Shown one piece after another: positions 9,522 to 55,012 of a stretch of DNA of 64,000 nt. Position numbers and translations under genes: made by a program. This DNA comes from Rugalucina vietnamica (Eukaryota; Mollusca; Bivalvia; Lucinida; Lucinidae): NCBI GenBank assembly GCA_964017185.1, contig OZ024878.1:2707151-2771150 (forward strand), read 5' to 3'. The notes beneath the pieces were generated by a model. It worked only from the letters and a program-made list of their open reading frames with translations. It was not told the DNA's origin and ran no database searches. Numbering within the stretch: position 1 is the stretch's first letter; each line of letters begins with the position of its first letter.

Positions 9522-12500
9522 TCATTTAGAACTGAATCTTGATCTGAAGTTCTTGACAGCCTCTTCCTTGTCAACTTTGTTCACTTTATCTGTAGTATAT
9601 CCAGGAATGGACACTGCTGGTCGGATTAGCTGAGCCTTGGCCTCCTTCACAGTCTTGAAGGTTGTCCTCAGAGACCACACGGCGTCCATCAAATCATCAA
9701 CATAATCTGGAGAAAAAAAACAGCAACCATTTATTATCAAAATTCAAACGGCCAAAACTGAAGGATGGTCAAGTTACTAAATAATAGGCAATGTTGTTTC
9801 TAGTATTATTTTTTGTAATACTGTTGCTATGTATGACCAATAATTGCTTGTCTCAGCCACCAATTTTTTAGTCATGTCGGGACAGAGCGACCACTTCCTG
9901 GATATTTATCACAACTGTAGGAAGTAAATGTGTCTTGCTTTCAAGGTGACCCCAGCAGGGATTGAACCCCTTGAGTATCGGTCATTCACTCTACCACAAG
10001 GCACCAAGCTCCCTAAAATGTTATGTTTGACTATGTAAGGTAATACAGGGGTAAACTATTAAAACATGATCTCAATAAATTTACTTTATAATTTTCTTTT
10101 AGTCTGTTTTAGTCGGTTGTAACCCTTACCCAGATTTGTTAAAGTTGGGTGAAAATTTGGGCCAACACCCATTGGGCGTTGATATATGATTCTTGGTAAA
10201 CCGTTCAGGTCAAAGCCTTCACAGAAAAAGTAGTTCAAGTCATACCATCCAAACACAAACATTTTAGTTTACTGATATGGTTATGTATTTTAAAGCACAT
10301 TTTGCATGTCATGACTTCCTACTGATAGATAGGAGGCCCATAAAATTGAGTCAATGTCCAGACATGACCTGAGCTGTTGACTGTGACGTAAAGCATCAAT
10401 TACATTAGGAAAACATGTCCTTGTAAAGTATACCCCCTCAAACCCCAATTTTATATAGTAAAACTGTGGTATGCAGGGGTATACCTATTTTTCTTATTTT
10501 TGCTCCAAAACATAGATTGTGGGTACATGTACTCGTTAGAACTGACTCGGCGAGGCAGTTCTAACGTGTACCCACAAACTATGTTTTGGAGGAAAAATAA
10601 GAAAAATATCAAAATTTTCTACTAAAACTTTTCATTTTTTACAACTTTAGAAATCACTGTATATTGCATGGGCAAGTTTTCGTAATGATTAAAAAAAAAT
10701 AAAAAAAAAATAATCAATGACAACATGTTGTTGTTCCAGATTTTGCAAATAAAATATTGAAACAGCAAATTGTGCAAAATATATTTACCATATGTCACCT
10801 TTGTAGTTACTTTCGTAACAACCTCTTTCCCCTTTTTGTACTTTGGGTAGGATAGTTTCCACCTTGGAACTCCCTCTGCAGTGACAGCTTGGGCTTTGTT
10901 GACATTTTCATTGAAATGGAGTGCAGCTAGCAGCAACCTGAAATAAATGTAATGATAACAATCAATTGCCATAAAATTGTGATATAGATAAAATTTGATT
11001 TGAGTCCCTCAAAATAGTTTAATGCACTATACTGAAAATAAAACATGAAAACATGAAACATATCTTACGAATGGCTATTGCCATCAGTCGACAGATTAGT
11101 GGTCACATATTGGGAAAGAGCTGTTCACTCAGCTTACAATATGCTCTTTTTGAATTAGTTCCTGGTTTATTTTTCCAGCCTCAGCTTTTGGAGTAAGACT
11201 TTCTTTTTAAATGGTAGGAACCATTTCCAGATCATTGCTTAATTTTACCATTTCAGGTAAGTAGCATAATTTATATAAAATATTTCACAAATATATATAA
11301 AAATGGATACTTATAAATGCAAGTTTGCTATGATTCAGTTACTACTTGTGTAGATTTGGGAAACATGGACTTTTACTCTGCTGTACACTTACTTTGCTTC
11401 CATAGACTCGTAGAAAAAGTGACCATGCTTGGACGCAAAGTAACACACAATCTTATGGAAGGCCTCCAAGGAAGACGTCTGCTCTTTGCCGGATAGCTGC
11501 TCAATGTCATTCTTTAGTCGGGTACTCTGTATCACAGCCTTCAGTTCTTTATGTGCTTTTGTCTCTGGAAATGTATTGAGTATTATTACATAGATCTATG
11601 TGACTATCAAAAAAAATATGAGGGTAAATGAAATAGCAACCCTGATTCCTATAAATGGACTGTTTGGCCTTTTCAACTGATTAAAGCATAACATGCTATT
11701 TTTGAAACCCACTCATGCACTCGCTAAAATGGTGTGTCTTACATATGCCACAAATAGTGGTCATACCCAAGACAATGACTAAGATAATTAAGGCATCTAA
11801 CCTCATCTTGTCTGTTTATAAAAGAAACAACAGTGATCTGCTTCAAATAAGTACATGTAATCTGCTTGAAATAACAGTGATCTGCTTGAAAAAAAAAAGT
11901 TTCATGAATCAATTTACATATTTGAAATACCTTTGCCTATCCAGTTTCTGTCGATATCACCATGTAAACATCTTGGAAAGAGTTCACCGTGTCCCTCATG
12001 AACATTCGTGATGTGTCTTTCGATTGACAGCCACTTCTCCACCACCATCTGTTTGTTGCCCCCACTGGATGCCGCACACCAGTACAGATGATTAGAGATT
12101 GATTTTATCCATGGGGCAACCACTTCACACTTTGGTTTCTTGGCGATTTTATCCAATTTCTTCTTCACAGCTGTATGAAAATAAATAAAAATAAACTGAG
12201 ATTTTTTAGAGCAGTGAGCATATTAATGAGAAAATGGATGGGCCATACTGCGGTTTCGACTAGATATGTCTCTTCTGTGACCCTCTAGATTTGGCAAAAT
12301 GGAGTCAACAAGAAATACTGTATACTGTATATATGCACCCACCATGAATTATACTCATTACTGCATCATAAGTAACCTATATTTCTTTTCGTAACGACCA
12401 TCATCATGTGATTCAAATTTGAAAATGATAGTTGATGAACATACTGTAAAATCAGTTGAGACAGGCTATCATTATTGTCTCAGTTTTATTTTTATTGTGA

Positions 12501-20519: not shown

Positions 20520-21005
20520 GGCTCTTCTCTCTTCTCTCTCTCTCTCTCTGTTGTAAAATATTCATGTAGAATTTTGAAAAGAATAATACTCCAACTTATG
20601 TATACTTGCCTCTCTAAGGAGCGATTTCTTTTCCACAGGTCGTAGACTGTTGTACAGCTTCGACGGTGATGTTGTTGGTGGAGCTTCTCCGTGGTACCAA
20701 AACTTAGTAGGAATAGCGTCTTTTTTCAAACGCGGCCTCGCCGTCTTCACGTTGCACGAAAATGCCACAATGGGATGCTTTTCGAATGCATCAAAGTCAA
20801 AGTGTAGTCCGCACATTAGAGCGCCTTTCGCCGGTTCCCATTTTTTCTTCTCAAACCCGGGCTCAACATACTTTCTCTTGCACTTTTCTACCCAAATGTC
20901 ATATCTTCGTTTGTCACTGTTTTTATTTGGAAACGTGTGGAAACTTATCTCTTCAGGGTTTTTTCTGTTGTCCTTTTTACATCCCGCTACCGCACATTGT
21001 ACCAT
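9522..21005 (-). CDS. THAP-domain, transposase-derived protein, 10 exons, 823 aa
   Basis: Exons in coding order: 21005-20610, 17812-17600, 15347-15243, 14524-14223, 13900-13378, 12804-12618, 12170-11931, 11564-11393, 10937-10789, 9706-9522. They total 2472 nt with matching phases and no internal stop. Residues 1-100 are a THAP zinc finger: C4, C9, FHTFP at 22-26, W38, C65-x2-H68, AIPT at 97-100. Residues about 240-338 are acidic (DDDDE, DDPDWLPGDDDSTDSEEE). From 339 on the protein resembles a family often found in fish, cnidarians and molluscs: YIVFQSCLLALF, CDNGHVREW, AGDGRCCSPGHTAKYGSYSL, YHMELEGLKR, IITDRHCQVRKWL, WFDVWHISK, SISNHLYWCAASS, QTSSLEAFHKIV, LLLAALHFNEN. The GDG, TDRH and later acidic residues could be a DDE-type core; Kolobok is a candidate superfamily, untested. 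It is intact and intron-rich, which suggests a host gene of transposase origin. The first intron seems to use a GC donor. DNA binding in the nucleus is inferred. Confidence 0.8.
9865..10018 (-). repeat. tRNA-derived SINE, minus orientation
   Basis: Read on the minus strand: GGGAGCTTGGTGCCTTGTGG..TAGAGTGAATGACC, then GGGGTTCAATCCCTGCTGGGG (B box GGTTCAATCC) and a tail ending CTGTCCCGACATGAC. It lies between exons 10 and 9 of the THAP gene. Confidence 0.65.
10408..10688 (-). mobile_element. foldback MITE family A (GTATACCCC), copy 1
   Basis: About 280 bp with imperfect termini (ACGAAAACTTGCCCATGCAA on one side, the complement of AGGAAAACATGTCCGTGCAA on the other), a central palindrome CCGCCTCGGCGAGGCGG type flanked by ACATAGATTGTGGGTAC and its complement, and a GTATACCCCTGCATACCCC block. 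Other copies: 19270-19525, 22478-22815, 29088-29367, 29398-29510 (partial), 33568-33812, 35286-35566, 47137-47410, 48189-48382 (core deleted), 49398-49661, 58212-58430, 60052-60325. No ORF in any. Confidence 0.85.
12203..12310 (+). repeat. interspersed repeat family R2 (GCAGTGAGCATATT)
   Basis: About 100 bp: GCAGTGAGCATATTAATGAG, GGATGGGCCATAC, CTGTGACCCTCTAGATTTGG. Related copies at 43915-44005 and 63575-63660 (inside the interrupted retroelement). In an intron of the THAP gene. Confidence 0.55.
14573..14793 (+). mobile_element. foldback MITE family B, THAP-gene intron 3 copy
   Basis: TGAGCGGCTGTATAAGAAAA at the left and TTTTCTCATGCAAAGGCTCA at the right, with AGGCGCAGATCAGCT / ATCAGCGCCTTTGT inside. 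It is diverged from the 8410 copy. Confidence 0.75.
15400..16540 (-). mobile_element. AGCTCACCTGAGCC foldback element, two diverged partial copies
   Basis: Copies at about 15400-15700 and 15735-16540, each ending on the plus strand with AGCTCAC..TGAGTCTTCGGCTCAGGTG. Their bodies share blocks such as GCCATCTTGGTCATGTGACC, CTCCACATAAAATTT and AGGTCAAGGTCATCCC with the plus-strand copies at 51021-53145 and 55921-58085. They lie in intron 2 of the THAP gene, just beside exon 3. Confidence 0.75.
16783..17414. mobile_element. inverted-repeat element of unknown family
   Basis: About 630 bp bounded by long inverted repeats: CACTAG.CAGTCAGGGACAAAACC at the left and its complement at the right, continuing for about 55 bp through AACAAGTTAT and TAACTGAAACAAGTTATT blocks. 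Noncoding interior. No clear target-site duplication. Confidence 0.65.
19270..19525 (+). mobile_element. foldback MITE family A, THAP-gene intron 1 copy
   Basis: Starts TTACGAAAACTTGTCCATGC, has the CCGCCTCGACGAGGCGG palindrome at 19396-19412 and the GTATACCCCTGCATACCCC block. Its right end is degraded. Confidence 0.8.
20466..20550 (+). repeat. CT dinucleotide microsatellite
   Basis: (CT)n run of about 85 bp, interrupted once by AGGCTCTTCTCTT. It lies about 60 bp past the donor of the first THAP exon, inside intron 1. Confidence 0.95.
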
Positions 21006-21464
21006 TTTGCGGCACTTCTATATCATATAAAGTCTTTTTAATCACGCATGTCCCGTAATGACGTCTTCGAAAACGGCAATGTACACTAAATTAAATCGTT
21101 TTACTGCAGAAACCGATACACGAGATAGAGAGAAAATGTTAATTTATAAATGGGATATTGTAATCGAAAATATTATTCTTTTCTTCTATTTTTTTTTTAT
21201 TCAAGTCACTAAACCAGAGACATGTAATACCGCACTAACGTAATGGAAGCTGCATGTTCGGACATTTATAATTATTGCAACCTTATTTGTCATATAAATA
21301 TTTTTCTCTCTACTTCGTGTATAACCTTTTGCAGAAAATTCGATGTTTGACACAGTAAAGAAGAAATCACAGAGAATAATCACTAGTTAATCCATAAAAA
21401 AGTACTATGCGTCGCGATCTATGTAATATACATGAGTGCCAGAATCCGTTCGCATTGAATAGTA

Positions 21465-26246: not shown

Positions 26247-27157
26247 AATATCTCGTGAATGTACTTTGTCCATGATCAGACCTTCGTTTGCCTTTGAAAC
26301 GTTTTCGAGGCAAAATATGTCGAATGAATCATCATAACTGACTGGAGAAAACTTTGTGACATATCACTCACACTCCAGTATATAAATCACGCTCTATCGC
26401 AACACTGTTACATGCAGAATGACAATGTAGTTAATAGAAAGGTACAAGTAGGCAACGATCAGGAAAAGGCGCAATCAGAAAAAGATTCCCATTCCAAAAA
26501 CCGAGGTGGGAAAAAACTAAAATAATAATCAGGTACTTATATAGAAACTCATTTTGGCTGTAACAATGTTTGCTTTTCTGAAAACTTGGACCTTTTGTAA
26601 AGTAGTGGCATTGAGAGAGTAGTGTTAAAATGCTCGCTTATCATGGTTGTGGTCTTGATAAATGCATGGTTGGGATACCCAGTCCAAGTTTTGTGTGTAT
26701 CCCCGAGTTCTTCATTCCACCATAGCAAACCACCCGCAAATCAAGAACGCCTAAAAGTTTTTCACAAGCTTGCGTTTGTTTTATAACCCAATTTTGTAAT
26801 CATGCCGTGGCATTGGTCACTTTGGTTCCGAGTTCCGTTAACTTAACAGGTAAACGGGACAAAATTGGTCACGGGGAGGTAATAATCAAGAATGCAATGA
26901 TTATAGTTAAATGATTTTATACAAAAAACTACTCGAATCCACAAATAAAGGATAAATATGATGGTCTACTATTCTGTATGTATTCGTGACTATCACATTC
27001 GTGTTATTTCACCTTGGACACCTTGTGTATGTCGGGTCAGCAGCATCAATTTCACGTACGTAAACATGAGGACATTGACTGTTTTCATCAGTTTTGCATG
27101 AAATAGCATGGTGATGAACCAGTATTTTCTTAGGAAGCTTTAAGAGACGACTGCAAG

Positions 27158-27395
27158 ATGCAGAACATCGTCTTACTTTATCTCGCATTATTTCTCGTTT
27201 GTGCGTGTAAGTTCTAAATTTATTTTACTATACTGTTTAGTTTAAACATATTTTATTGTCAAACTTACAAAGGGGTTGGGCTACAAGTTCTGACAACATT
27301 AATTACAGCCCGTCCCCTACAACATATTTACAACAACAGCGTACATGGCAAACATAAACAAAAAGTTATACTATGCATATACCTATTTTCAAATA

Positions 27396-27462
<67 letters not shown>

Positions 27463-28378
27463 GTAGTTTCAGTGTCAGATGTCGGTTTGGAGAAATCAAA
27501 ACTGGACGAAGTATGGGACTTATTCGTCATACAGTGACTACTCAAAGCGCCTTGTATCCTTTATGTACTGTTAGACAGCCTGAAATAGAAAATAATTATC
27601 GTCATCATTTAGAGTAGATTTTACATTGTTTCAATAATTTCGGTTTCAGAAGTTTTAATCGGTTCTTTTTTGATTGGTTTAATTTTCATTTGATAACTTA
27701 AAAAGTATCGAAAAAAAATCAAGCAATTAAATACATGTAGCCATGTGACATTCATTGAGTGATCGTAGAATATATATTTCTAGAACATGGTAATTTTATC
27801 AATATTTTCTATTTTGATAACTACTCGTTCTCTTTTGATCTGAGTAATTAGAATTTAAGTAAGTAAGTAAGTTTATTTACAAAGTCAAAAAGGCTATAAA
27901 GCCCATCAGGATACAAGCAATTACAATACATACAATACATATCATAGGTTAACATGGATAAGATTCATTTTGTAACCTACATTAATAATTAATAATATTT
28001 GGCTCCATTTTGATAAAACTATTCTTTGTACGGACTATCCTGTTGAAGTTTGCAAAATCTCAGAAATACATTTTGGCTCCTTGTTGCCAATTATGAAGGG
28101 TCACTAATGAGGCTTCAGTAGCCGAAACTATGGTATGGTCCAACTCCTTTCTCTTTTATATGCTCACCGCTCTTTAAAGGATTGCAGTTTTTGGTTCACA
28201 ATTCTTAATTTTTAATTTTCTCACTTTGTTTGCAGCTGGAACATCTAAGATGTTTGCAGTGAACATTGGTCATGGCTGTCCATTTAAATTCCCAAAATGT
28301 ATTAAAGACTGCAAAAAGAGCTCGTATCCGTATGGCATCTGTATCAAGAAACTGTGTATCTGTCTCAAACTCGAGTAG
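27158..28378 (+). CDS. secreted CS-alpha-beta (defensin-like) cysteine-rich peptide, 2 exons, 63 aa
   Basis: Exon 1 27158-27206 (donor GTAAGT) encodes MQNIVLLYLALFLVCA, a clear signal peptide. Exon 2 28236-28378 (acceptor TTTGCAG) continues in phase 1 and stops at TAG. The mature peptide is about 45 aa, lysine-rich, with six Cys spaced C-x6-C-x3-C-x9-C-x4-C-x1-C and a GIC at Cys4. That is the cysteine-stabilised alpha-beta pattern (CxxxC, GxC, CxC) of invertebrate defensins, so a secreted antimicrobial role is likely; the same fold is used by some ion-channel-blocking peptides. The 1029-nt intron holds an AG microsatellite. An alternative end is possible: a GTAGGT donor two bases before the stop could join in frame to an acceptor near 28838 or 29008 and add about 15-18 residues. 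No close homologue recognised. Confidence 0.65.
27403..27459 (+). repeat. AG dinucleotide microsatellite
   Basis: (AG)n of about 57 bp in the intron of the CS-alpha-beta peptide gene. A CT run of similar length lies just past its stop codon (28389-28442), so the last coding exon has complementary simple repeats on either side. Confidence 0.95.
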
Positions 28379-28385
28379 GTATCGC

Positions 28386-28388
<3 letters not shown>

Positions 28389-28442
<54 letters not shown>
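28389..28442 (+). repeat. CT dinucleotide microsatellite
   Basis: (CT)n of about 54 bp starting 10 bp after the stop codon of the CS-alpha-beta peptide gene. Confidence 0.95.
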
Positions 28443-28447
<5 letters not shown>

Positions 28448-28703
28448 GTAATCAGTTCCAGTTTAGAAAATAATGTAGTGATAGGTATTTTTATCGAGAA
28501 CGTTTGTTACGTTTATATTCTCGCAAGCCGTTTTCAGATAAAGAAAGTAAAATCGAATGTTGATTATTATAAAAAAAAGTATATGAACATTAAAAATAAA
28601 ATAAATAAAAAAAAAACAACACTAAAAGTAGGCAATGCTCAGAAACAGGAATTGGCGCAATTAGAAAGAAATTGCCACTCCCAAACCGAGATGGGAAAAA
28701 CTA

Positions 28704-29031
28704 GATTAACAATAAGGTACTTAAATTTTAGTAACGTTTAAAAACGTTTAGTGGTAAATAAAATGAACAAATGTTTGAATGAAGTACGCATAGTTCCCTT
28801 CTTCCATTTTTACCTTTACATCACTGTATTTACTTGCAGGTCATATCTTAGGTTCGGTCATTTGGTAAAATGTAACAATCAGGTACTTAAACTTTAGTTA
28901 CGTTTTAAAAAACGTTTAGTGGTAAATAAAATGAACAAATGTTTGAATGAAGTTTGCATATTTCCCTTCTTCCATTTTTACCTTTACATCCTTGTATTTA
29001 CTTGCAGGTCATATCTTAGGTTCGGTCATTT
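28704..29031 (+). repeat. tandem duplication of about 170 bp carrying a splice acceptor
   Basis: Two copies, about 28704-28862 and 28875-29031, share AGGTACTTAAA.TTTAGT, GTTTAGTGGTAAATAAAATG, CTTCCATTTTTACC and TTTACTTGCAGGTCATATCT. Each has an acceptor-like TTGCAG and an AATAAA. This could be a duplicated 3'-terminal exon of the CS-alpha-beta gene, or duplicated noncoding DNA. Confidence 0.7.
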
Positions 29032-29087
29032 GGGAGATGATGTACGCTCGTAGATGAAGCTTCTACCTCGCAGTTAGCCAGGATAGC

Positions 29088-29367
29088 ATCACGAAAACAT
29101 GTCCGTGTAATGTATACCCCCTTGAACCCCACTTTTATATAGCAAAACTGGGGTATGCAGGGGTATACCTATTTTTCTTATTTTTGCTCCAAAACATAGA
29201 TTGTGGGTACTCGTTAGAACCGCCTCGGCGAGGCGGTTCTAACGTGTACCCACAATCTATGTTTTGAGCAAAAATAAGAAAAATATCAAAAAAATTTCCT
29301 CTGAAAATTATCGATTTTTGACCTGAAAAAATTACTGTATATCATATGGGCATGTTTTCGTAATGAG
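29088..29367 (-). mobile_element. foldback MITE family A, best-preserved copy
   Basis: Perfect central palindrome GTTAGAACCGCCTCGGCGAG and complement, flanked by ACATAGATTGTGGGTAC / GTACCCACAATCTATGT. Ends: AAACATGTCCGTGTAATG and the complement CATATGGGCATGTTTTCG. A truncated copy follows at 29398-29510. Confidence 0.85.
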
Positions 29368-30794
29368 TGTAATCATTTCTAAAGCCAACACGTGCCAACA
29401 GGATAACATGTCCGTGTATTGTATACCCCATTAAAGCTCACTAATGCATAATAAAACTGTGCTATACAGGGTACCTATTTTTTCTTATTTGTGATCCAAA
29501 ACATATACTTAAGGAATTAAAATACGCAACACATTAAAATTCAACTGTAACGTATGTATTTGACGATGTTAATTAAATCTCTTTTAAATACATATGTTTG
29601 TCTTGCAGACTACTTGTGGCATGTGATGAAATGAGAAAACGTCATTTGTTTGACAAAATTGACGTCAAAACGTCAAAAACCATGAAAAAACAAATTGTGA
29701 CGTAAAAACTGGGGTGAAGATGCCAAAAATGTACATGTTTGGTAATGTGACGTCGACTTGATAATCTGTAATAAAGATTAGCATCATTGCATACTTGAAT
29801 GCCAGCCCATGTTGCTTTAAAATTGGTACACTGAATGCAAAAGTGCACAATAATAAATAATGAGCCATCCATGTCATTTAGATTATTCGGTGTGGGCCTT
29901 TTGTGCTGATACGGTATTTATCGAACCAAAAGAGGACATGCCATACTTTTCAAGCAATAGTGACGTCACAGGTACCGTACAAATGGGGCTCCTAGCGTCT
30001 GTTTTGTCATTGACGTTGGTGATGTTAAACGTCACAAACATAATCTAATGCTACCAACGAGTCAATGAATACATCTGCAATCATTTTCAATTGTTTTGGA
30101 ATGAATAAAATTGTTTTTGGTTCAAAATTGACTTTAATTGGTCATGTTTCCAGTGTGTGCCACGGTGGCTCAGTAAGGTAATGCGCACGCCATCAAGCAT
30201 ACTTAACCGACATAGTGACTTAACCTGCTGTATTTTGACGCTTAGATACTGCTCACATGTAATAAGATCAGATACACGACATGCTTGCATTACAAAGCCA
30301 GCCTACACTACCCCAAAGTTTTTGTTGCGTTTCTTTATTCCTTAAGTATATATTGCGTGTACCTACAATTGATGTTTTGAGCATACATATTGAAAATATC
30401 ATATTATTGGAATTTTCAAGTTTTACAGCTGAAACCATTGCGTTTGCAAATTATAAAGCTTTGTTCTATTATGTTACAAGCCAAATTGGATCTTGTTTTA
30501 AACCATTCAATACGGATGTCCCGACATAACTGAGAATGTTTTGACTGGGACACTAAACCTCAATACAAACACACATTGGATACCGACGTGTTATGGAATT
30601 TTGTTATTTCAGTCTGTTGACATCTGTACGTCATTCAACAGTTCCATTTAGCTATTTAGGACATTATGTACTTTTATTAATTCAAAGATAAAGGCGTACG
30701 AAAGATAAGGAGTAATGACTTATTAAAAGTTTCCGAACTCTATTTGAGTGTTTCAAGTGGTTGAAATCTTTAATCATTAAACAATAACTTCAAG

Positions 30795-31178
30795 ATGCTA
30801 CTGACATTTGGAATTATCACGGTATTCATCCTTGCCAACGGATTTCTTCTCCAAAGGAATTATCTGACTCCTGAAAGGCCAACCCTTACGGAAGGATCAG
30901 CATTGAATCTAACATGCAAGTTGCAACAGTTCAATTCCTTCATCAAAGCTAACTACACAACAGCGGATATCGTTTTCGCAAAGAACGCGAATAGAATACC
31001 GACCAATTCTACCGATGTATTCATAATGGACGCCATGACAGCGAAACTACAGATACATGCTCCAGCAAAGGTCAACAAGACGCTAGGACTTATGGATCAT
31101 TATTATTGTTACGTATTTGATAATGGACACCTGAGTCATATAGTTAGACAACAATCTGTGGAATGTACGACTATGTAA
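30795..31178 (+). CDS. secreted single Ig-like domain protein, single exon, 127 aa
   Basis: Starts at an ATG with a hydrophobic N-terminus (MLLTFGIITVFILANGF) typical of a signal peptide. One Ig-like domain follows: LTEGSALNLTCKL (first Cys), ADIVFAKN, AKLQIHA, LGLMDHYYCYVFDNG (second Cys in a YYC context); the usual Trp after the first Cys is not evident. Several N-glycosylation sequons (NLT, NYT, NST, NKT). Stop TAA at 31176; a variant polyadenylation signal ATTAAA at 31316. An alternative donor (ATGTAACA) at the very end could extend it into a longer gene, but I saw no partner exon. A binding or recognition role is a guess. Same strand as the neighbouring CS-alpha-beta and CUB/LDLa genes. 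Confidence 0.6.
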   Translation: MLLTFGIITVFILANGFLLQRNYLTPERPTLTEGSALNLTCKLQQFNSFIKANYTTADIVFAKNANRIPTNSTDVFIMDAMTAKLQIHAPAKVNKTLGLMDHYYCYVFDNGHLSHIVRQQSVECTTM

Positions 31179-34139: not shown

Positions 34140-37100
34140 ATGAAAACAGTATACATAATTGTTAATACATTACTTATTGTAACATTACAGAGTGTACATG
34201 GAATTAGTGATTGTAAGTTAGTGCTTTGAATTTACAAAACCCCAAACCCACTATAAACCAGTATTTTGAACAAATACGATGGCCGAGCATCCGTGTTATG
34301 ATCGTTACGTTAATACACGTTTATATACAAGAAAGTGTTGTTTATGAAGCTTGTAGGCGCGATAGCATAGTATTGTCCTTTATCAGGCAACTAGGATAAA
34401 ATACAAACCGTTCCCCAGCGGATCATCTATTGTGATTTTGTAATACTCTACTATTGGCATACAGTTAAGCGTATTCCATTTGTGTATTCTACTTGGGATT
34501 TTGGAACGCTAAGAATAAAATCTTATGAAACATTTCAAAAGATTGTTATAAATTTTGACAAAAACATTATACCAACAATTTAATGAAGAAAACATAATAA
34601 ATGCACAAGTAAGCAAAGGGTTGTAACCGTTGACTGCACAAAGAAAATTACCCATACAACTGTGAAAATTCAATAGAAAAATTTCGGAGGCCAAAGGTGA
34701 GCACAACTTCTCAGAAAACACCAAGACAGTAACGATTTTTTCAAAAGATATAGTTTTGAGCGACCAGTTTCAGAAAATGCTGAAAAAAGTCAAATGGCAG
34801 CACAGAAAACTCGACCACCTTTGGTTAACATTGCGTGTACCATCCCCTCTGTCGAATAACAAGTTGGCACCTTCTGATCATGGAAGCATTTGAAGTTCAA
34901 GATCATTTATACTCACAGACAAAATTGGAAACACTGATAAAAAATGTAGCTAACGTTATGCTATATTCATGATATTGTAGCGCATACCCATCAAATTCAT
35001 AAAATTGAAGAATTTTTTGTTTGTTTGTTTCTATAACGCTTAGTCCTTTTTATTTGGCCTAACAAATGTATACTAAGAGAAATGTTCATTTTTTAGATAT
35101 TAAAAGTAGTCACAAATACACTTTGAAACTTCAACATAGAAAGGCTTAGCTTCTAGTATATGCAATGCTTATGTTACTTTGGAACTGTCCGAGAGAACAT
35201 ATAAACATGACCCTGCAATGCGGCATACATATGTTTTGATAGAGATTAAGAACCAAGATAACCTATGAAGCTGGCTGAACAAAGATTTCATGTCCATGAA
35301 ATGTATACCCTCAAAAACCTTACCTTTATATGCATTATATTAAAACTGGGATATACAGTGGTATGGGTATACAGTGGTATACCTCTTTGTCTTATGATTG
35401 GCCTAAAACATAGATTGTAGTTCTCGTTTGTACCTCCAAAGCGCGGCGGTTAAAAAGTGTACCCGCAATCAATGTGTTTAGCAAAAGTTGAAACATATTT
35501 GATATCTTTGAAAAAAATAGCTAAAAGTATCGAAAGTATCTGTACGTTTATTGCATGGATATTACGGCTGATTTTCAGATTATCTAGATGAGCATTGCGG
35601 GGGTGCAATGCCAAGTTTTAGACAAGCCCGACTGCAGCTGACACGGGATTACCCAACACAGTCGGGTCCCTACCACCCCCAGACTACCGGTGTTTACCAA
35701 CCCGACGAGGACTGCCAGTTTAGGCTCATCGCGAGACATGGGTACCACCTGATGGTTTTCTTTACAGTTCTGGATATTCCCAGCCAGGATAACTGCACTA
35801 GTGATTGGCTAGAAATAGTGGATGGCAACTCCACGTCCAATTTATCTTTAACAGGTACAAACTCGACGGACATTCAATAAGTCCTGGGTATTGCATTGTC
35901 TTATTAAACTTAATGTATTGCTCCTCTTTCTATATTCAATACTTGTCGCGTGCATAATAAAACGTAGTAGTTCGTCCAACTGATTGCATGAGTAAATCGT
36001 GCGATGATTTTAGAGAAATTTACTCGTGTCATATAATTCGACAAATAGGTTACCGTATGGGCGACACCTCATTAATACGTTATTGGGTATGGTCTACTTT
36101 TGACCTAGGTAAAAGCTTAAGGTATACAGTTGAGACATTCAACATACATGTTTTCCGTTAGAAAATAAGAAAGAAATCCGAGTTTGTCTAATTCACAGGA
36201 TTGGACAAAATACAGGTAGCTGATTTCTAACGGTAAATATATGACAGCGGTCCGGGCTGACTGAGTTCGACTTTTCTATAAACTCCCTACTTGAACGGAT
36301 GGACTAGCCGAGCACGCCCATATATGAATATTAAAGTTACCGCCTATACAGTGACCTGTTTGCCGAATTATACACTTCTTTTTAGTGTCAGTCATAGTAA
36401 ATAGAATACCTTGCGACTGTTTTAATTTCAGGGAATGGATCAAAATTATTTCGCTGAAATATGTAAATCTAATATAATGTATATGTAAGCAATGATCAGG
36501 AAAGTGGTGAAAAATGGCAATTAGGTACTTATACAAATACATATTTCATAAGCGTACAGAGCAGTTACATTTATTTCCCTAAAGGTGGCCACTCATTTAC
36601 CAGAACTTTCTTTTATACATGTATATTAATACACGCAAAAAGGCACACACTGCACGGACAACTAATCGGCACCAAACCATAACACAGACAGAACCACAAA
36701 AGAAATACATATTTGCATCATATCTAATATTCAAATTACAAAACAGTGTTATTGTTATTTTTTTTTTTTTATTTCAAGACGGAAAAAAATGCGGTAACGT
36801 GTTTCCAAAGGATGTGTTCACAACTGAGGGTCGAGAATTGACAGTGACTTTCCATAGCAATCAATCCATCATAGACTCAAGGTTTGAACTCATTATAACG
36901 GAATATCATACAGGTATTGTCATTAAAATATTTGTTCCAACGGTATAACCTTGATTCAATGTGGTGGTTCTTCTTCGTCGTTTCCATTTCAATCACTGAT
37001 CAATTACTGGTTTCCATCCTTAAATTTTATGAATATCTTTTGCTGCAGTGATGTCTAATCAGATACTTTATTTGCAAGAAGAAGGCAAGGCAGCAAACAA

Positions 37101-38998
37101 ATTTGACCGTCTCGAATCGCTCAGCATACAACAACAAACGAATATAGAAGCCTCCGTGGTGCAGTGGTTATGTCACTCGCCTTGTAAACCAGGGGTCGCA
37201 GGTTCGATCCCGGGCTTCTCCAGTCCGTCGGATGGGATTATAAACCGAGGTCCCGTCTCCATATGACCTTAGCTGTTGGTGGGACGTCAAACCCGAATCA
37301 ACCAACCAACCAAACGAATATACCTTTAAGTATAAACTTGCGATTATGGTAACCGTTACATTTGACAGACATCAGACAAACAGAGAACCCTTACTAAAAG
37401 CAAACCATACAGCCCGTCCTCAGAGCGAGTCACATGCTTAGCCCGTTATTTTCACTCATTACAGGTAAGTGCTCTGTTTCGGAGCACATGTGTCGCAATG
37501 GGCGGTGTGTATCAAACACATGCTCAGCCCGTTATTTTCACCCATTACAGGTAATTGCTCTGTTTCGGAGCACATGTGTCGCAATGGGCGATGTGTATCA
37601 AACCTGATCACGGGATGCGGCGGTGGCAACGGAAATAACCCGTGTGGTGATTGGTCAGACTGTGATACTATAACACTGAAAACTTGTAAGTCATGAGCCT
37701 TCGCATGAGAAGACTAACAATGTATCTGGGTTTCCGACCAGATCCGACACAAGCCAGGCTGTACAGCTCTAGAAGCAGGCTAGAAACCTGAAATTTCAGA
37801 TTTAGAAAGACGATGCATTGTACAATCTACATGTTTGAGGTGAAAACAAAGATGCAGATCTGCGCCTTTGCTTTCGTATATGCAGGTTGTTGGTTTTCTT
37901 ATACAGCGGCTAAGATAATTTTTCGAAAGTTTACATAGGTTTTTCTATTACATACACCGGTAATGGCGGAAACCGTTAACTGAGCCGCCTCTTGGGAAAA
38001 CCAACAGTGTGGTTTCCGAACAGGTCTGACACAATCCGTCCTGTACAGTCTCAGAAGATGGTAAGAAGCTTGAAATTTTAAATTTAGAATGTAGAGGAAT
38101 TTTACTATCCGTGTAGCGAAAACCAAAGCGCTGATAAGCTTCGCGGTTGCGCCTTTGTTTTCGCCTATGCAGATTGTTGTTTTTTCCCTGTGGCGGCTAA
38201 ATTAATACATCAAATTATCTAGCAGTTATCTACATAAATATCTCGTATATTGACTCGTTTCAAAACATGGTTTTGTCCCATTATTTGTTATATATCTTTT
38301 CATACTGCAGCACCCTCTCACGAGTATTATGTGCAGTCGCGCTGTCAGTGCAAGTCTATTAATATAGACAACTGGTTTACAATTTCTATTTATAATCCGT
38401 GCATTGTTGATTGTCACCTCCCCGTGACCAACTTTGTCCCATGTACCTGTTAAGTTAACGGAACACGGAACCAAAGTGACCTTTGCCACGACATGTTTAC
38501 ATAATTGGATTATAATGTTTGACATAATTGTTGTTTTTGTCATTTCCTTATTTTGATTTCACGGAGATGTATGCGTTTAAGATTGCTCCAGTGTATTATT
38601 TGTCCGGGAATGGAACAATATTAGGTATCGGCTTAAAAGTAGTTGGACATTAAAATATCAATCATGTATGCCTGACACTGACACACTTAGGCATTTAACT
38701 AAGATGTACGGTCTAGAATGTTCTCAATATTATCAAATTATCATAATATTACAAAACAAACACTTATTTAATATCAACTTAACTTGGGAAATTTTTGGCA
38801 ACAGACAAAATAGGAAGAGTTAACACAAAATAAAATTTTACTTTCAGACTATCTTGATGAACACTGTAATGAGACTCTATATGTTAATGGCAATACCGGT
38901 CCTCTTCTACTAAACCTGACAAGGCACGCCTATTACAAGCCCAACATGAAATGTGAGGTACAGGAAATTTAAATAAGCTCCAGTGCATCATCATCATC

Positions 38999-39051
<53 letters not shown>

Positions 39052-39115
39052 TATCATCACCATCATCATTTTTATCATCATCATCATCATCATCATCATC
39101 ATTACCATCATCATT

Positions 39116-39154
<39 letters not shown>

Positions 39155-39212
39155 GTCGTCGTCGTCGTCGTCGTCCTCGTCACCATCGTCGTCGTCGTCG
39201 TCGACGTCGTCG

Positions 39213-39269
<57 letters not shown>

Positions 39270-42200
39270 ACCTACGAATATGAAATTCGTAACTAAGAGA
39301 TGTAGCATTGCTTGAAAACACCTCACGTCCCTGGTGGGATTCGAACCAGGAACTCCATTGACTGAAATCCAATTCTCTAAACACTTTGTCAAAATTGTCG
39401 ACTCCCTGACGAAGTATGTCAGAGATTGTATTTATCTGATACAGATTGTACTTGCCTGATACAGTGTATTGAAAAGCTGTGCTATCGATAGAAGCAACGC
39501 ATTGTGTTTTTATTGTGTTTTATTATTATTGCTAGGTGACTCTTACTGCAGTAGACCTCAGTGGACAAGGCAGCAGTAGTGTAGACCACAGTAGATTGAT
39601 GGTCTACCTGAGCAGTATAGACATAGAGAACCAGGGTCAGTGTAAATATGACTGGGTCGAAGTTGATGACGGGAGTAGTAGGACAACTGCTGATTTCTCT
39701 AGTACGTTTAACCTATATATGAGCCGTCTCGTGAGAAAACCAATAATGTGGTTTTTGAACAGGTCCGACACAAATCAGACTGCACAGTCACTGAAGCAGG
39801 CTAGAGGCTTGAAATGTTTGATTTAAAGAGAAGAGGGATTGTACTATTTGTGTAGCGGAGCTGATCTGCGCCTTTGTTTTCGCCTATGCAGAGTGTTGGT
39901 TTTCCCATGGGGCGGCTCAATTATTATTTCTATCTCTTTATAATACTTTATTAAAAAGGTTTTGGATTTGCCCCGTATCATTTGTCTTTCATTTTAGACT
40001 GATTTTTTAGTTAACATGTATACATTTTACTCGAGTTGTTATACGAACTGGATCGCTTATACGAGAATAAGTGTGAGATCCAACAATACAGTAGATGGTT
40101 TTCGAAAAGTAGACTCAAATATTGAATAGGACAAGCATTATTTACTTCAAACGCAGATTTGTATTAGAAAAAGCGGTAGGATTGTACAATGTGCGTAGAG
40201 GAAAACTGGTTTATTCAGGGGGTAGCAGGCTTGGGGTCAATTATTTTGAAAAGTAATTAATTGAATTACAATTTCATTGACATTTGTTCAGTTAAATTAC
40301 AATTACTAGGCATTTCAGCAAAGTAATTCATTACATACACTAACTTAGCCTAATGTAATTTATTACATACAATAACTTTGCATTGAGTGTTGAGACGCAT
40401 TAAACTTTCAAGTCCCAAAATAATCATAAATGGAAGTAAAGTTCGAGAACACTTGTAGCAATAATGATTGAGAATTATCTGACAGGAACCTTTTGTACTA
40501 TCCCATCAAATGTCAAAATATTATTTGCAAATATAATAACACCTTGTAATAATGGTTAATAATTAGGAGTCTAGGAAGCAGTATATCTGTTCTCACATGA
40601 CTGTAAAATTTGTTGACTCTCACGCTAAAGCACATTATAAATTAGTTATAACATGATAAAGAATTTTGATCAATAATTTCCATCAGCTTCCCATTTGGAA
40701 AACATAGTATTCAAGGTCACTCCACCTTTGATGTATTAGAATTACTCATGTATTTGAATTGAAAAGAAGCAGTTTAATTTTGTGACCATTTTGGTTAAAA
40801 TGACTTCAAAACCTTTAAATAGCCTAAAACACTACTCCAAAAAGCATCTTATTCAATTATGAATCTTTCAGTGAGGTGTGTAAAATAAGCAACAAGAAAT
40901 GCTGCAGGCAATACACCAATTAAGTGCACAAAAGAAAAGATAATAATTGTTTGAGTTTTCACACTTCTTTGTTTAATAATTGTTTGATGTCACAGTGTGT
41001 TTAAAAGATGATAAATAGCTCATCAGTTAGGAAAGGGTTAAAAGTACCAAAGACTTACTTACATCTGTAGACGAAGAAACAGTTTTAATAGATAAAGAGA
41101 CAAATTTTAACTACAGTCACTACAGGGCTAACTGATGTCTAGGGGAAAGTATCTCATTTGAATACTGTATGATCGATCAGATACTTCAATAAGACATGCA
41201 ACGAAAAACGATTCAACAGGATAATCTGCAGTGCACTCTTACAATATTGATCTCTAAATACATGTAAGAGATACTTTTTCTCTAAAGTAATTCAAAGTAA
41301 TTCAAAGTAATATTAATTTCTCTCGTTTTTGACACTGTAATTCATTACATTTCAATTATTGTAATTAAAGTAAAGACTGAATTACAATTATTTCAATTAT
41401 TTTGAAAAATGTAATTAAATTGCAATTAATTACAATTACAATTTTAATTACCCCAACCCTGGGGGGTGGTAGATAATCATTTAGTACACTCCAAAATAGA
41501 CTATTGTGTACATGCATTTTAACATAAATCTAAATCATTGTGTGTTACATTTAGGTGGTAAACTGTGTGGCAACACGGCCCCGACTAACACGTATAGATC
41601 ACTTGGTAAATCTATGACGGTGTATTTTCAAAGTGATGGGTCAGACCAGTTCAGCGGGTTTAAAATGGTTGTAACTCCATTCCATACAGGTAAACTTGTT
41701 ATTAGGAAGATAAGCCATCAGGTAGTAAGAAAAAAAGGAACCAGTAATTGACACATTTAAATATAAACCTGACCCATTTTACCCTATTTTTAGATTAGTG
41801 GTCTGCCAATTTTTTTGCTGTATGTATAATATTTCCGTCAGAGAGAACGTAAAGTAAAGTAAAGCCTTGGTTTTCTAAAGTCACAATCTGTACATATGTC
41901 TATGACTTAAATGCTTTACTTGAAAGGCCTATAGGACTTTTCATAGCTACAACGGAAAAATATTTTCTGTTATACCGAGATTTTTGCAGGAACCTGTTTG
42001 TCAGATGAACATCAGTGTGCGGATGATAGGTGTATCTCTAGTGAGGCCACGTGTCTGGGTTATAACACATGCGGAGATGGGTCAGACTGTCCTCTACCTC
42101 AACCGCCTGCTTCTATAACGTCGGGTAAGTGATCATTTGTCTGTAAGCAACTTGACGTCATTTGCGCTAAAGTGGCCCATATACTGCTAATACCAATTTA

Positions 42201-45200
42201 CCAATAATAGACGTATCTCTAGTAAGGCCACGTGTCTGGGGTATAACACATGCGGAGATGTGTCAGACTGTCCTCTACCTCAACCGCCTGCAACGTCCGG
42301 TAAGTGATCATTTGTTTGTAAGCAACTTGACGTCCTTTGCGCTAAAGTGGCCCATATACTACAAATACCAATTTACCAACAATATATGTTTCTTTAGTGA
42401 GGCCACGTGTCTGTGGTATAACACATGCGGAGATGTATCAGACTGTCCTCTACCTCAGCCTCCTGCGTCTATAACGTCCGGTAAATTGTCATTTGTCTGT
42501 AAGCAACTTGACGTCATTGGCGCTAAAGTGGCCCATATACTACTAATACCAATTTACCAATGATAGACGTATCTCTAGTGAGGCCACGTGTCTGGGGTAT
42601 AACACATGCGGAGATGTATTAGACTGTCCTCTACCTCAGCCGCCTGCATCTATAACGTCCGGTAAGTGAGCATTTGTCTGTAAGCAACTTGACGTTATTT
42701 GCACTAAAGTGGCCCATATACTACTAATACCAATGTACCAATGATAGATGTATCTCTAGTGGTGAGGCCACGTGTCTTGGGTATAACACATGCGGAGATG
42801 GGTCAGACTGTCCTCTACCTCAACCGCCTGCGTCTATAACGTCCGGTAAGTGATCAACTTGGCGTCATTTGCCAATTAACCAATGATAGACGTATCTCTA
42901 GTGGTGAGGCCACGTGTCTGGGGTATAACACATGCGGAGATGGGTCAGACTGTTCTCTACCTCAGACGCCTGCATCTATAACGTCAAGTATTATAATTCT
43001 GTCAGAAACTGCAATGACCATCTAATATCCATATCCCAACTTAGTCCCCTTCAACATAGGCGATATTTCAAAACTTTATGATGTATAGACGCTGAATAAA
43101 AAGGTACAAGTAGGCAAAGATCAGGAAAAGGCGCAATCAGAAAGAGATTCCCACTCCAAAAACCGAGGTGGGAAAAAAACAAACTAACAATCAGGCACTT
43201 ATACCATGAAACATATCGTAAGCCGAATGAGCAGCTATTTTCCCAATAGGTGGCCACTCAGTTACCTTAGCTTAATAAAAAATATGAAAACATACATAAG
43301 GTGCTAACAGCACAAAAAAAAATTAAACACCAAGACATAAAACAAAATGAACCACCACAGAAGTATCGCCTTGGAACGATCAGTAACACAAAGTTGTAGA
43401 ACAATTTTCGTAAGTTTGATTTTTATTCATGCTAACTTTTAGTTAAAAAGTATGTCCGTATAAAGAAAAAATAGGCTGCTTGTGTCTCAGCCAATGCTCA
43501 TAATCGACTGACCGACCACACAATTGCTGATTGACCGCTTCGACGGCTAGCCTTAAAATGAACAGTGGATTAGTCCATTATAAAAATCCTGATACATGTA
43601 AGTTAGATTGTTTACTTGGATGGTTATATGCAAGGGTCATTGCATCTTCAGTGTTGGGTAGAAGTCCAACAAAGAGGAGGTGACGTCCCGACATTCTCAA
43701 AGCTATTGACTGAAGCATACAAAGATAAAAGTAAGCAATGGTCAGGAAATGGCGAAATCAAAGAAACTGCCACTCCAAAAGCATCAAATGAAACAAACAA
43801 TTCTTCTATTGACATGCAAGCAAAGAGTCCAAATATCCATTGTCTTTACTCCCAAAAATTTATGCTATCGGAACAATTTAACCTTTCCTTACAAATAAAG
43901 ATAAAATGATCCTTTAAAAGCAGTGAGCATATTGATTAGAAAAGGGATGAGCCATACCGCGATTTTGGCTACTCAAGCCTTATCAGTGACCCAAAAGATT
44001 TGGCAGCATGACATCACTGGGTGCTTCCTTCGTCCCGATATAAAAAGGTTTTGTTTGACTTTTTCTATAGGTCCCGATAGGATTTGGTTTTGTTTGATTC
44101 CGGTATCAGATTTTTTTCTACAATAATTCCTAGAATTTGGTCAAAGATTTGATTTGATTCTTATTTATGACGTCATTGAAAGAATTTCAATTCATAATAT
44201 AGTGCTTTGAATGCAATTTTATAGTAAGATTCCATTTGATTCGTTAAAAATGAAGTAATTTAAGCAATTTACGTTATAATCGACTCTATTTTGTGGAGAT
44301 TTACTGTGTTAAAGAAGTAGAACAAAATCCGTTACCAAAAAGTCAAACAAAACCTTTTTATATCGGGACCAAGGAAGCACCCAGTGATGACATGGAGCCA
44401 AAATGAATACTCTCCAAACTTCACTCTTTAGGATGCAAGATATGCTGGTGGTACCGACATTAAAGGGCAACTAATCTTACTACATCTAATGTCTCTATGC
44501 CGTAATACATGTATTGATCGAATAACAGATGCTTCGTTTTAGATTAACCACAGCAGTATTTTCGTATTTTTCGACAAATTGTTTTCCCTAATATAGAGTT
44601 TTCCACATTCTAATTTTAATTTTCATTTAATGTTGCTTTTTCCTTCAGTGTATCTTGATGCTCGGTGTTATAGTAACGAGCGCCTTCCTATCCATGGTCA
44701 AATTCGCCTGCAACTGACTAGAAGTGCGACCTATTCACCACACTTAAGCTGTTACCAAACATTCGAGGCTGGGCTCGGACAGAGAATGATGGTGTATTTC
44801 CGAAGTCTAAATATAGAAAATCAGGGCACGTGCAGCTATGACTGGGTGGAGCTTGATAATGGTGCATCAAGATCTAGCGGATACATTAACGGTATAATTT
44901 TAACTATGCCCTTACTTTACTGGTATAGTTTCTTGACTACGTCCTTACATTAATGCTAGTATTTCTTAACTATGTCCTTACTTTACTAAATATTTCGATC
45001 GTTTCATCGAGTAGATCGAAATAGTTGTCTATGCGACACGTGAGCGCGACTAATTTGTCGTAGTATACTGGAGGTTATGCACGGGCGATTCAGTGAGTGA
45101 GCGGTTTACTGTGATTTTGAGGGCACTCTCTCGAAGTGAACAGCTTTGTACCAAACTTTGTATAGATATGATGATCTTAAGGTGTTAGATTGCCACCTTC

Positions 45201-54200: not shown

Positions 54201-54981
54201 GGCGGTTTTAGTGTTCATGCCCACCAGCGCCATCATGAACCCCAACAACAACCGAGGTGGGGCCTCTAAGCGCAGGAATCTGGGGTTGGGCATGTGGGCA
54301 ACTTGAGGCAAAGCGACTCCTCTTTGAACAGCTGACAGATGCCTACAACCCCCCTCTCAAACAGATGATTTGGTATTTATTTTGTCAGTAGCTAAATAAA
54401 CGGACAAGCTATGGAATTGTAAAATCTGCGAACCGTTGCTTGATTCAAGTTGACATTTGCGTTGTTACCCAGGTGGAAAGCTGTGCGGCCATACAATACC
54501 GACCCAGGTCTACTCTACCACAGGACGCTATATAACTCTGTACTTCAAGAGCGATGTCTCTGTACAAGGAAGAGGGTTTGATATGATTATAACGTCATAT
54601 CGGGATGGTAGGTGTAACATCAATTTAACCCATATTTTACGAATGAATTTTCCCATCATTACCATTTGAGTCAGTCCACTTTCATTATTAGGGGCATCAG
54701 GGGTGATTTTGAATTTTTATTCCATTTTTCGATGAAATTCTTCTGAGCAAACAGTATAGCCCCAGATGGGACGCCGCGTTCTGCGGCGTCACATCTTGGG
54801 CTATGCTGTTTGCCTACGTCCCTCAAAAAAGCAAGGATTAAATGAGTTAAAGTATAAGCACCAATCGATATGTTCTAATCTGGTTTTACATAGTACAAAC
54901 ATACACTTTCACGAAACGTGTGGCACATAAACCTAGATCCCTTACATCGAGTATTAACATTCTCAAAAAAAATAAATAAAA

Positions 54982-55012
<31 letters not shown>

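What the first reader, a model, noticed from the sequence alone, without database searches (positions are those of the whole stretch)
27158..28378. Hidden two-exon CS-alpha-beta peptide gene
A signal-peptide exon with a GTAAGT donor and a downstream exon in matching phase encode a lysine-rich mature peptide with C-x6-C-x3-C-x9-C-x4-C-x1-C and GxC. Neither half shows up as a meaningful open frame alone. The spacing fits defensin-type peptides, but the sequence is not one I recognise, so it may be a new member.
Basis: partly seen in the sequence, partly recalled or inferred. Interest (0 to 1): 0.75.

Follow-up and report, generated by a model that had tools for sequence, protein, structure and literature searches.

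The report
Two-exon defensin-like peptide gene
A shellfish (probably scallop) genome carries a small split gene that very probably makes a secreted, disulphide-rich defence peptide; it is one of a scattered gene family, new in detail but of a well-known kind.

Summary
Exon 1 (27158-27206) and exon 2 (28236-28378) join in phase 1 at GTAAGT/TTTGCAG and give a 63-residue precursor with C-x6-C-x3-C-x9-C-x4-C-x-C and GxC. It is not a chance pattern: the window's own 1.09-Gb genome holds paralogous exons on contigs C9, C10 and C17, and the reversed peptide finds none. Four of six other single-domain paralogues have their own upstream signal exon with a GTAAG donor, all in phase 1. In the pair L011/L012 the exons are 84% alike, the introns no more alike than shuffled DNA, and dN/dS is about 0.2. 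Best sense: a secreted, cationic, six-cysteine CS-alpha-beta peptide nearest short-n-loop defensins, probably antibacterial. Formal membership is weaker: Pfam scores stay below cut-off (21.8 of 27 bits), the helix histidine is absent, and no structure could be predicted. A potassium-channel role is less likely (no KCXN). New member of a known kind. In passing: seven loci encode two CS-alpha-beta units in one frame.

The parts
27158..27206 (+). Exon 1 (coding part): start codon and signal peptide MQNIVLLYLALFLVCA plus first base of a split codon
   Evidence: hydropathy and GTAAG scan
27207..28235 (+). Phase-1 intron, 1029 nt, GTAAGT donor and pyrimidine-rich TTTGCAG acceptor; contains an (AG)n tract at about 27401-27460
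   Evidence: phase and position shared by paralogues
28236..28378 (+). Exon 2 (coding part): rest of the precursor, whole CS-alpha-beta domain, stop codon TAG
   Evidence: E 4.6e-28 self match and paralogues
28277..28363 (+). Six-cysteine core C-x6-C-x3-C-x9-C-x4-C-x-C with GxC (gamma-core)
   Evidence: ten invariant columns of alignment A1; window keeps 10 of 11 columns invariant in the other six members
28589..28609 (+). Possible polyadenylation signals (ATTAAA 28589, AATAAA 28595 and 28604)
   Evidence: motif scan; consensus matches only, in an A-rich stretch, not evidence of use

Best explanation
This is an intact host gene for a secreted antimicrobial peptide of the CS-alpha-beta (invertebrate defensin) kind. 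Exon 1 encodes the signal peptide. After splicing (phase 1) and removal of the signal, probably after ...LVCA, a peptide of about 47 residues (pI about 9.3) folds into one helix packed on a two-stranded sheet. It would be held by disulphides 1-4, 2-5 and 3-6, with the CxxxC of the helix bonded to the CxC of the last strand. It is released into haemolymph or onto an epithelium, where its positive face attaches to bacterial envelopes. It then kills either by general membrane damage or by sequestering the cell-wall precursor lipid II, as oyster defensins do. Shown here: gene anatomy, homologous family, shared intron phase, selection on paralogues, cysteine frame. Inferred: transcription, signal cleavage point, disulphide pairing, fold, antibacterial action, and (least secure, perhaps 30%) lipid II as the target.
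For: Joined precursor and spacing. Paralogous exons in the genome, none for the reversed peptide. With all phases allowed, a signal exon with GTAAG donor lies upstream of 5 of 8 relatives (46.6 kb), all 5 in phase 1, against 1 background donor in 106,710 bases; 2 of 5 further two-domain loci (1.5 kb upstream each) have one too, both phase 1. L011/L012: coding 84%, dN 0.10, dS 0.51; introns 42.5%, six shuffles 42.1 to 45.9%. L009/L010, 47 codons of exon 2: 7 of 10 nucleotide differences silent, dN 0.027, dS 0.318. Profile A1 against the PDB: 10 distinct sequences at E<=0.01, of which 9 are named as defensins, micasin, BmKDfsin3 or cobatoxin, e.g. 5xa6 BmKDfsin3 4.6e-4 and 2lr5 micasin 0.0018 (that all nine have the CS-alpha-beta fold is recalled). 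Pfam PF24552 'Defensin-like' matches 6 of 7 members, best E 1.8e-5. The same plan (two exons, phase-I intron, unsplit mature exon) is reported for scorpion defensins and said to resemble mollusc and arthropod ones (PMC6435467, section 16 read). Oyster defensin Cg-Def binds lipid II (PMC13139365 and PMC3418506, passages).
Against: No transcript evidence. The window peptide stays under Pfam's cut-off (21.8 of 27 bits), and 0 of 19 candidates scored in the genome pass it for PF24552. The best PDB profile hit is a beta-defensin (5ki9, 5.4e-5), a different fold class (recalled), and 14 of 54 hits at E<=10 are viral haemagglutinin or envelope chains, in my view chance. The one background signal exon is phase 1 too, as are all three found in the window at hydropathy 2.2, so phase agreement by itself says less than the number of donors. 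The window departs at one of 11 columns invariant in the other six members (K for P just after CxC). Of the plectasin residues named for lipid II binding (F2, G3, C4, C37, the N-terminus, His18; passage) it keeps G and the two cysteines but has H for F2 and D at the His18 place, and seems to keep an N-terminal extension before GHGC.
Confidence: 0.7

Rival explanations
1. It is a CS-alpha-beta peptide with a regulatory or ion-channel role (potassium-channel-toxin-like or a hormone-like ligand) and not an antimicrobial.
For: Single-sequence PDB hits are led by agitoxin 2 and kaliotoxin (E 0.04 and 0.068); some paralogues touch Pfam Toxin_2, Toxin_17 and PF14866 below cut-off; 2 of 4 distant relatives scanned pass Pfam Toxin_3, with 27.8 and 22.7 against 21.5 bits. 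The n-loop is short (6 residues). One review says that spacing alone cannot tell toxin from antimicrobial (PMC5116183, passage).
Against: KCXN, the gamma-core motif linked to channel toxicity with a short n-loop (PMC5116183, passages), is absent from 9 of 9 domains tested (the other two-domain loci were not in that test). With the family profile BmKDfsin3 and micasin come before cobatoxin, more defensins follow, and agitoxin comes only at 0.14.
Confidence: 0.15
2. It is a pseudogene or silent copy: the open frame is a relic of a once active family member.
For: No transcript data. The family has decayed copies: L010 has no GT at the place of L009's donor, and C17:29.59 Mb holds a row of broken exon-2 copies. 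The window has K where the other six members have P.
Against: Start, signal, donor, acceptor, frame, six cysteines and stop are all intact, and it keeps 10 of 11 columns invariant in the others. No close copy was found on which selection on this very gene could be measured.
Confidence: 0.1
3. The coincidence of a signal-like exon and a cysteine-rich stretch is chance; there is no gene.
For: Short exons and consensus splice sites arise by chance in AT-rich DNA.
Against: Paralogues with the same two-exon plan, genome-wide E-values down to 4.2e-8 with an empty reversed control, 0 of 60 simulated windows with the cysteine pattern, purifying selection in two paralogue pairs.
Confidence: 0.03

Closest known systems
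Scorpion CS-alpha-beta defensins (BmKDfsin2/3/4/6) and other short-n-loop 'ancient invertebrate-type' defensins such as micasin and plectasin
   Same: Two exons with a phase-I intron before an unsplit mature exon (scorpion genes, PMC6435467); six cysteines with a short n-loop, x3, GxC and CxC; GxGCPF start of the core (window GHGCPFK; BmKDfsin3 and micasin GFGCPFN); cationic.
   Different: Single-sequence similarity is weak (BmKDfsin3 E 0.15, micasin 1.1); H for F in GFG; D instead of H before the third cysteine; a stretch with an invariant V (then G-x-G-C) lies between signal and core, whereas the solved BmKDfsin3 and micasin chains start at GFGC.
Pfam PF24552 Defensin-like
   Same: Best Pfam match of the window peptide, and matches 6 of 7 aligned members.
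   Different: Below the curated cut-off (21.8 of 27 bits); model positions 12-42 of 43 matched.
Bivalve eight-cysteine defensins, myticins and mytilins
   Same: Secreted cationic CS-alpha-beta peptides of bivalves (PMC7168163, introduction read).
   Different: Eight cysteines and four disulphides, and for mytilins four exons; here six cysteines and two coding exons.
Scallop big defensins
   Same: Defence peptides of bivalves including scallops; six cysteines (PMC3182236, start of abstract in listing).
Scorpion alpha-KTx (agitoxin 2, kaliotoxin)
   Same: Cysteine frame; a strand-like stretch before the first cysteine (recalled for the toxins).
   Different: No KCXN motif; similarity weak (E 0.04).

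Membership tests
Invertebrate CS-alpha-beta defensins | Two exons, phase-I GT-AG intron, mature peptide exon not split (PMC6435467) | tested here: met
   shared by paralogues with all phases allowed. That the splice is used is not shown
Invertebrate CS-alpha-beta defensins | Cysteine pattern CX4-15CX2HCX6-9GX1CX4-9CX1C (PMC6435467) | tested here: not met
   Spacings and GxC met in 9 of 9 domains including the window, but the histidine is D here; only L014 has it among the nine
Invertebrate CS-alpha-beta defensins | Passes a curated family model (Pfam PF24552, PF01097) | tested here: not met
   21.8 of 27 bits for PF24552; no PF01097 match listed for the window peptide
Invertebrate CS-alpha-beta defensins | Helix plus two-stranded sheet with disulphides 1-4, 2-5, 3-6 | not testable with these tools
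   Structure prediction switched off; only sequence alignment of the family profile to solved chains with the cysteines in register
Invertebrate CS-alpha-beta defensins | Secretory signal peptide and cationic mature peptide | tested here: met
   Hydrophobic core 3.1 on the Kyte-Doolittle scale; pI 9.3; net +6 over the core. No signal predictor was at hand
Invertebrate CS-alpha-beta defensins | Antimicrobial activity | not testable with these tools
   needs the peptide
Ancient invertebrate-type (short n-loop) defensins | Six cysteines with a relatively short loop between Cys1 and Cys2 (PMC8819291, passages) | tested here: met
   x6 in the window; x6 or x8 in 9 of 9 domains
Lipid II-binding defensins | Plectasin contact set F2, G3, C4, C37, N-terminus, His18 (PMC3418506, passage) | tested here: inconclusive
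   G and both cysteines kept, F2 and His18 not, N-terminus probably extended (read from alignments)
Scorpion potassium-channel toxins (alpha-KTx) | KCXN in the gamma-core | tested here: not met
   0 of 9 domains
Mollusc eight-cysteine defensins, myticins, mytilins | Eight cysteines | tested here: not met
   six in the mature part

The most novel reading that the evidence does not exclude
The gene belongs to a so far undescribed bivalve (scallop) CS-alpha-beta family that has spread over several chromosomes by repeated duplication in two forms. One is a single-domain peptide that keeps a conserved N-terminal strand (V-x-x-G-x-G-C) in front of the core; the other is a two-domain precursor with two complete CS-alpha-beta units in one exon. 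The retained strand and the loss of the F2/His18 contacts would mean a mode of action other than plectasin-type lipid II capture.
Probability: 0.4. Interest if true: 0.5.

Novelty: new member of a known kind. Interest (0 to 1): 0.4.

Why it matters
Short secreted peptides split over two exons are easily missed by gene finders. If expressed, this family adds a six-cysteine defensin type, and a two-domain form, to a bivalve group for which the papers I saw speak of big defensins. It gives a set of natural variants with which to ask which residues are needed for lipid II binding.

Tried and rejected
Chance pattern: rejected. Mollusc eight-cysteine or big defensin: rejected by cysteine number and spacing. 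Family members in bacterial genomes: could not be scanned. Another gene pair in the window: a second signal-like exon at 11806-11743 (minus) has, in the next 9 kb, only one weak four-cysteine candidate partner. L015 match (C10:35.3 Mb, E 1.2) dropped: no CS-alpha-beta pattern. L047 and L048 dropped: pattern not found; three weaker matches were not opened. L008, the other copies at C17:29.59 Mb and L038 were left out of A1 as truncated. NCBIfam: only far sub-threshold actinodefensin (best 6.2e-4; 14.2 of 65 bits for the window) and a radical-SAM model matching 2 of 7. Never answered: genome searches with PF01097, with the L014 peptide and with the L013 peptide, so the family count is a lower bound.

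Published precedent: searches listed no paper that I could tell describes this family. I saw listings and the named parts only, and the library lacks most subscription journals.

Full report
What is there. On the plus strand, ATG at 27158 opens a 49-nt coding exon (MQNIVLLYLALFLVCA and one base of a split codon) that ends at GTAAGT (27207). A pyrimidine-rich TTTGCAG ends the intron at 28235. Exon 2 (28236-28378) completes MQNIVLLYLALFLVCASGTSKMFAVNIGHGCPFKFPKCIKDCKKSSYPYGICIKKLCICLKLE and a stop. The mature cysteines are spaced 6, 3, 9, 4, 1, with GxC at the fourth. Exon 2 is however visible by itself as part of a 66-residue open frame.

Is it more than chance? The six-cysteine pattern appears once in the window's six frames and in 0 of 60 windows simulated with the same base-to-base steps. 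Hydrophobic ATG exons that end at GTAAG number two in 128 kb of strand. The genome in which the window lies is held: 1.09 Gb in 47 contigs, the window being C10:2707151-2771150. The peptide finds itself at 4.6e-28 and relatives on C17 (4.2e-8, 2.6e-7, 8.1e-5), C10 (9.5e-6, 0.006) and C9 (1.5e-5). The reversed peptide finds nothing at E<=10 (the tool warns that an empty answer alone shows little, but the forward peptide is its partner).

Gene plan of the relatives. Each of the seven complete single-domain exons (window, L009/L002, L010/L003, L011/L004, L012/L005, L013/L006, L014/L007) has a plausible acceptor in phase 1 in front of the domain, among other AGs. A first scan for signal exons kept phase 1 only, so I repeated it with all phases. 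In 46.6 kb upstream of eight relatives it finds five GTAAG signal exons (L009, L011, L012, L014 and the two-domain L036), all five in phase 1; none for L010, L013 and the two-domain L037. Five more two-domain loci, with 1.5 kb each, give two (L042, L046), both phase 1. The background (opposite strands of the eight loci, and one strand of L015, L016 and L038; 106.7 kb) gives one, also phase 1. So the number of donors discriminates well; the phase alone less so. L010 has the matching exon but no GT at the donor place. L013 is the last of a row of broken exon-2 copies. Introns of the five complete single-domain models are 273 to 1630 nt.

Selection. L011 and L012, on different contigs, are 84% alike over 219 aligned coding positions; Nei-Gojobori dN is 0.10 and dS 0.51. 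Their introns align at 42.5%, within what six shuffled introns give (42.1 to 45.9%). L009/L010 differ at 10 of 141 positions over 47 codons from DLIKV on, 7 silent; dN 0.027, dS 0.318; the few codons before these, which differ more, were not counted. An earlier figure for this pair used a shifted frame and is void. For the window gene itself no close copy was found, so selection on it is inferred from the family. It keeps 10 of the 11 columns invariant in the six others and has K for P at the eleventh.

What kind of peptide. Alignment A1 of seven exon-2 peptides has ten invariant columns: V, G, G, the six cysteines and the G of GxC. As a profile against PDB sequences it gives ten distinct sequences at E<=0.01. 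Nine are CS-alpha-beta defensins or the scorpion toxin cobatoxin (fold class recalled); the top one is a beta-defensin, 5ki9; 14 of the 54 hits at E<=10 are viral haemagglutinin or envelope chains, in my view chance. Pfam's PF24552 'Defensin-like' matches 6 of 7, best 1.8e-5, the window at 2.0e-4 and 21.8 of 27 bits. In the genome 0 of 19 scored candidates pass that cut-off. NCBIfam shows far sub-threshold actinodefensin. Two of four distant relatives scanned, both two-domain, pass Pfam Toxin_3, 'Scorpion toxin-like domain' (27.8 and 22.7 against 21.5 bits). So the superfamily placement is well supported as a set, and each single piece is weak.

Comparison with print. Scorpion defensin genes have two exons, a phase-I intron and an unsplit mature exon, a plan said to resemble mollusc and arthropod defensin genes (PMC6435467, section 16 read). 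The pattern printed there asks for H before the third cysteine. Here it is D, and of nine domains only L014 has H. A review finds no criterion that separates 'defensins' from other CS-alpha-beta peptides and names KCXN with a short n-loop as a likely mark of channel toxins (PMC5116183, abstract and passages); 0 of 9 domains carry it. Short-n-loop 'ancient invertebrate-type' defensins are the closest class (PMC8819291, passages). Bivalve defensins, myticins and mytilins have eight cysteines (PMC7168163, abstract and introduction). Scallop big defensins have another gene plan (PMC7203481, passages).

How it probably works. Secreted, cationic (pI 9.3 for the 47-residue form; net +6 over the core), disulphide-stabilised, antibacterial. 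Oyster defensin binds lipid II (PMC13139365 and PMC3418506, passages). Of the plectasin contacts named there the window peptide keeps G3, C4 and the late cysteine, but not F2 or His18. By the usual -3/-1 rule (recalled) signal cleavage falls after ...VCA, which leaves eleven residues before GHGC; the invariant V in that stretch suggests it is kept. I therefore rate lipid II as possible, not as the default.

Organism. Its COX1 lies on a 30,680-bp contig and reads TGA as sense, which suits an animal mitochondrial genome of unusual size. Large ones are printed for the scallop Placopecten magellanicus (31-41 kb, PMC9727918; 32,115 bp, PMC3176263; up to 40,725 bp, PMC5031957; passages). I recall 30,680 bp as the minimum given for that species. 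This is a lead, not an identification.

Verdict. A well-formed member of a scattered family; new in sequence, ordinary in kind. The untested steps are transcription, fold and activity.

Noticed in passing
L036 (C17:14918738-14918992, minus), L016/L037 (C9:57610641-57610904, minus), L041, L042, L043, L044, L046: Seven loci encode two CS-alpha-beta-spaced units in one open frame (second units judged by eye; the genome match at L041 also spans a stop). Three (L036, L042, L046) have an upstream signal exon with a phase-1 GTAAG donor; L043, L044 and L046 lie within 150 kb on C13. Bi-domain defensins are printed for a plant (PMC5700942, listing only); my searches showed none for bivalves.
   Followed up: partly
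27403-27458 and 28388-28443: An (AG)n tract in the intron and a (CT)n tract nine bases after the stop form a 56-nt perfect inverted repeat around exon 2; in the pre-mRNA they could pair and loop it out.
   Followed up: no
29087-29471, with hairpin arms 29173-29227 and 29229-29283: Near-palindromic, repeated element whose pieces recur in several paralogue loci; looks like a fold-back or MITE-type repeat (the output was cut).
   Followed up: no
28693-29033 and 26509-26542: A 129-nt tandem duplicate (95% alike, 168-nt spacing) and a related piece upstream of the gene; similar pieces in L009, L010, L013 and L016, so probably a dispersed repeat.
   Followed up: no
11743-11806, minus strand: A second signal-peptide-like exon (MRLDALIILVIVLGMTTICGI) ending at a phase-1 GTAAG donor; no convincing partner exon found within 9 kb.
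   Followed up: partly
30774-31178, plus strand: Open frame with a hydrophobic leader near its start and a weak Ig-like match (PF13895, 19 of 27 bits), downstream of the peptide gene.
   Followed up: no
35572-55500, plus strand: Exons with CUB (four frames) and LDL-receptor class A (two frames) domains above Pfam cut-off: one or more secreted or membrane multi-domain genes.
   Followed up: no
20562-21017, minus strand: THAP-domain open frame (52.1 bits, cut-off 23.9), perhaps from a transposon.
   Followed up: no
L013 (C17:29.59 Mb): Row of several truncated exon-2 copies ending in one full copy with C-C-C at the end; no GTAAG signal exon within 6.9 kb upstream.
   Followed up: partly
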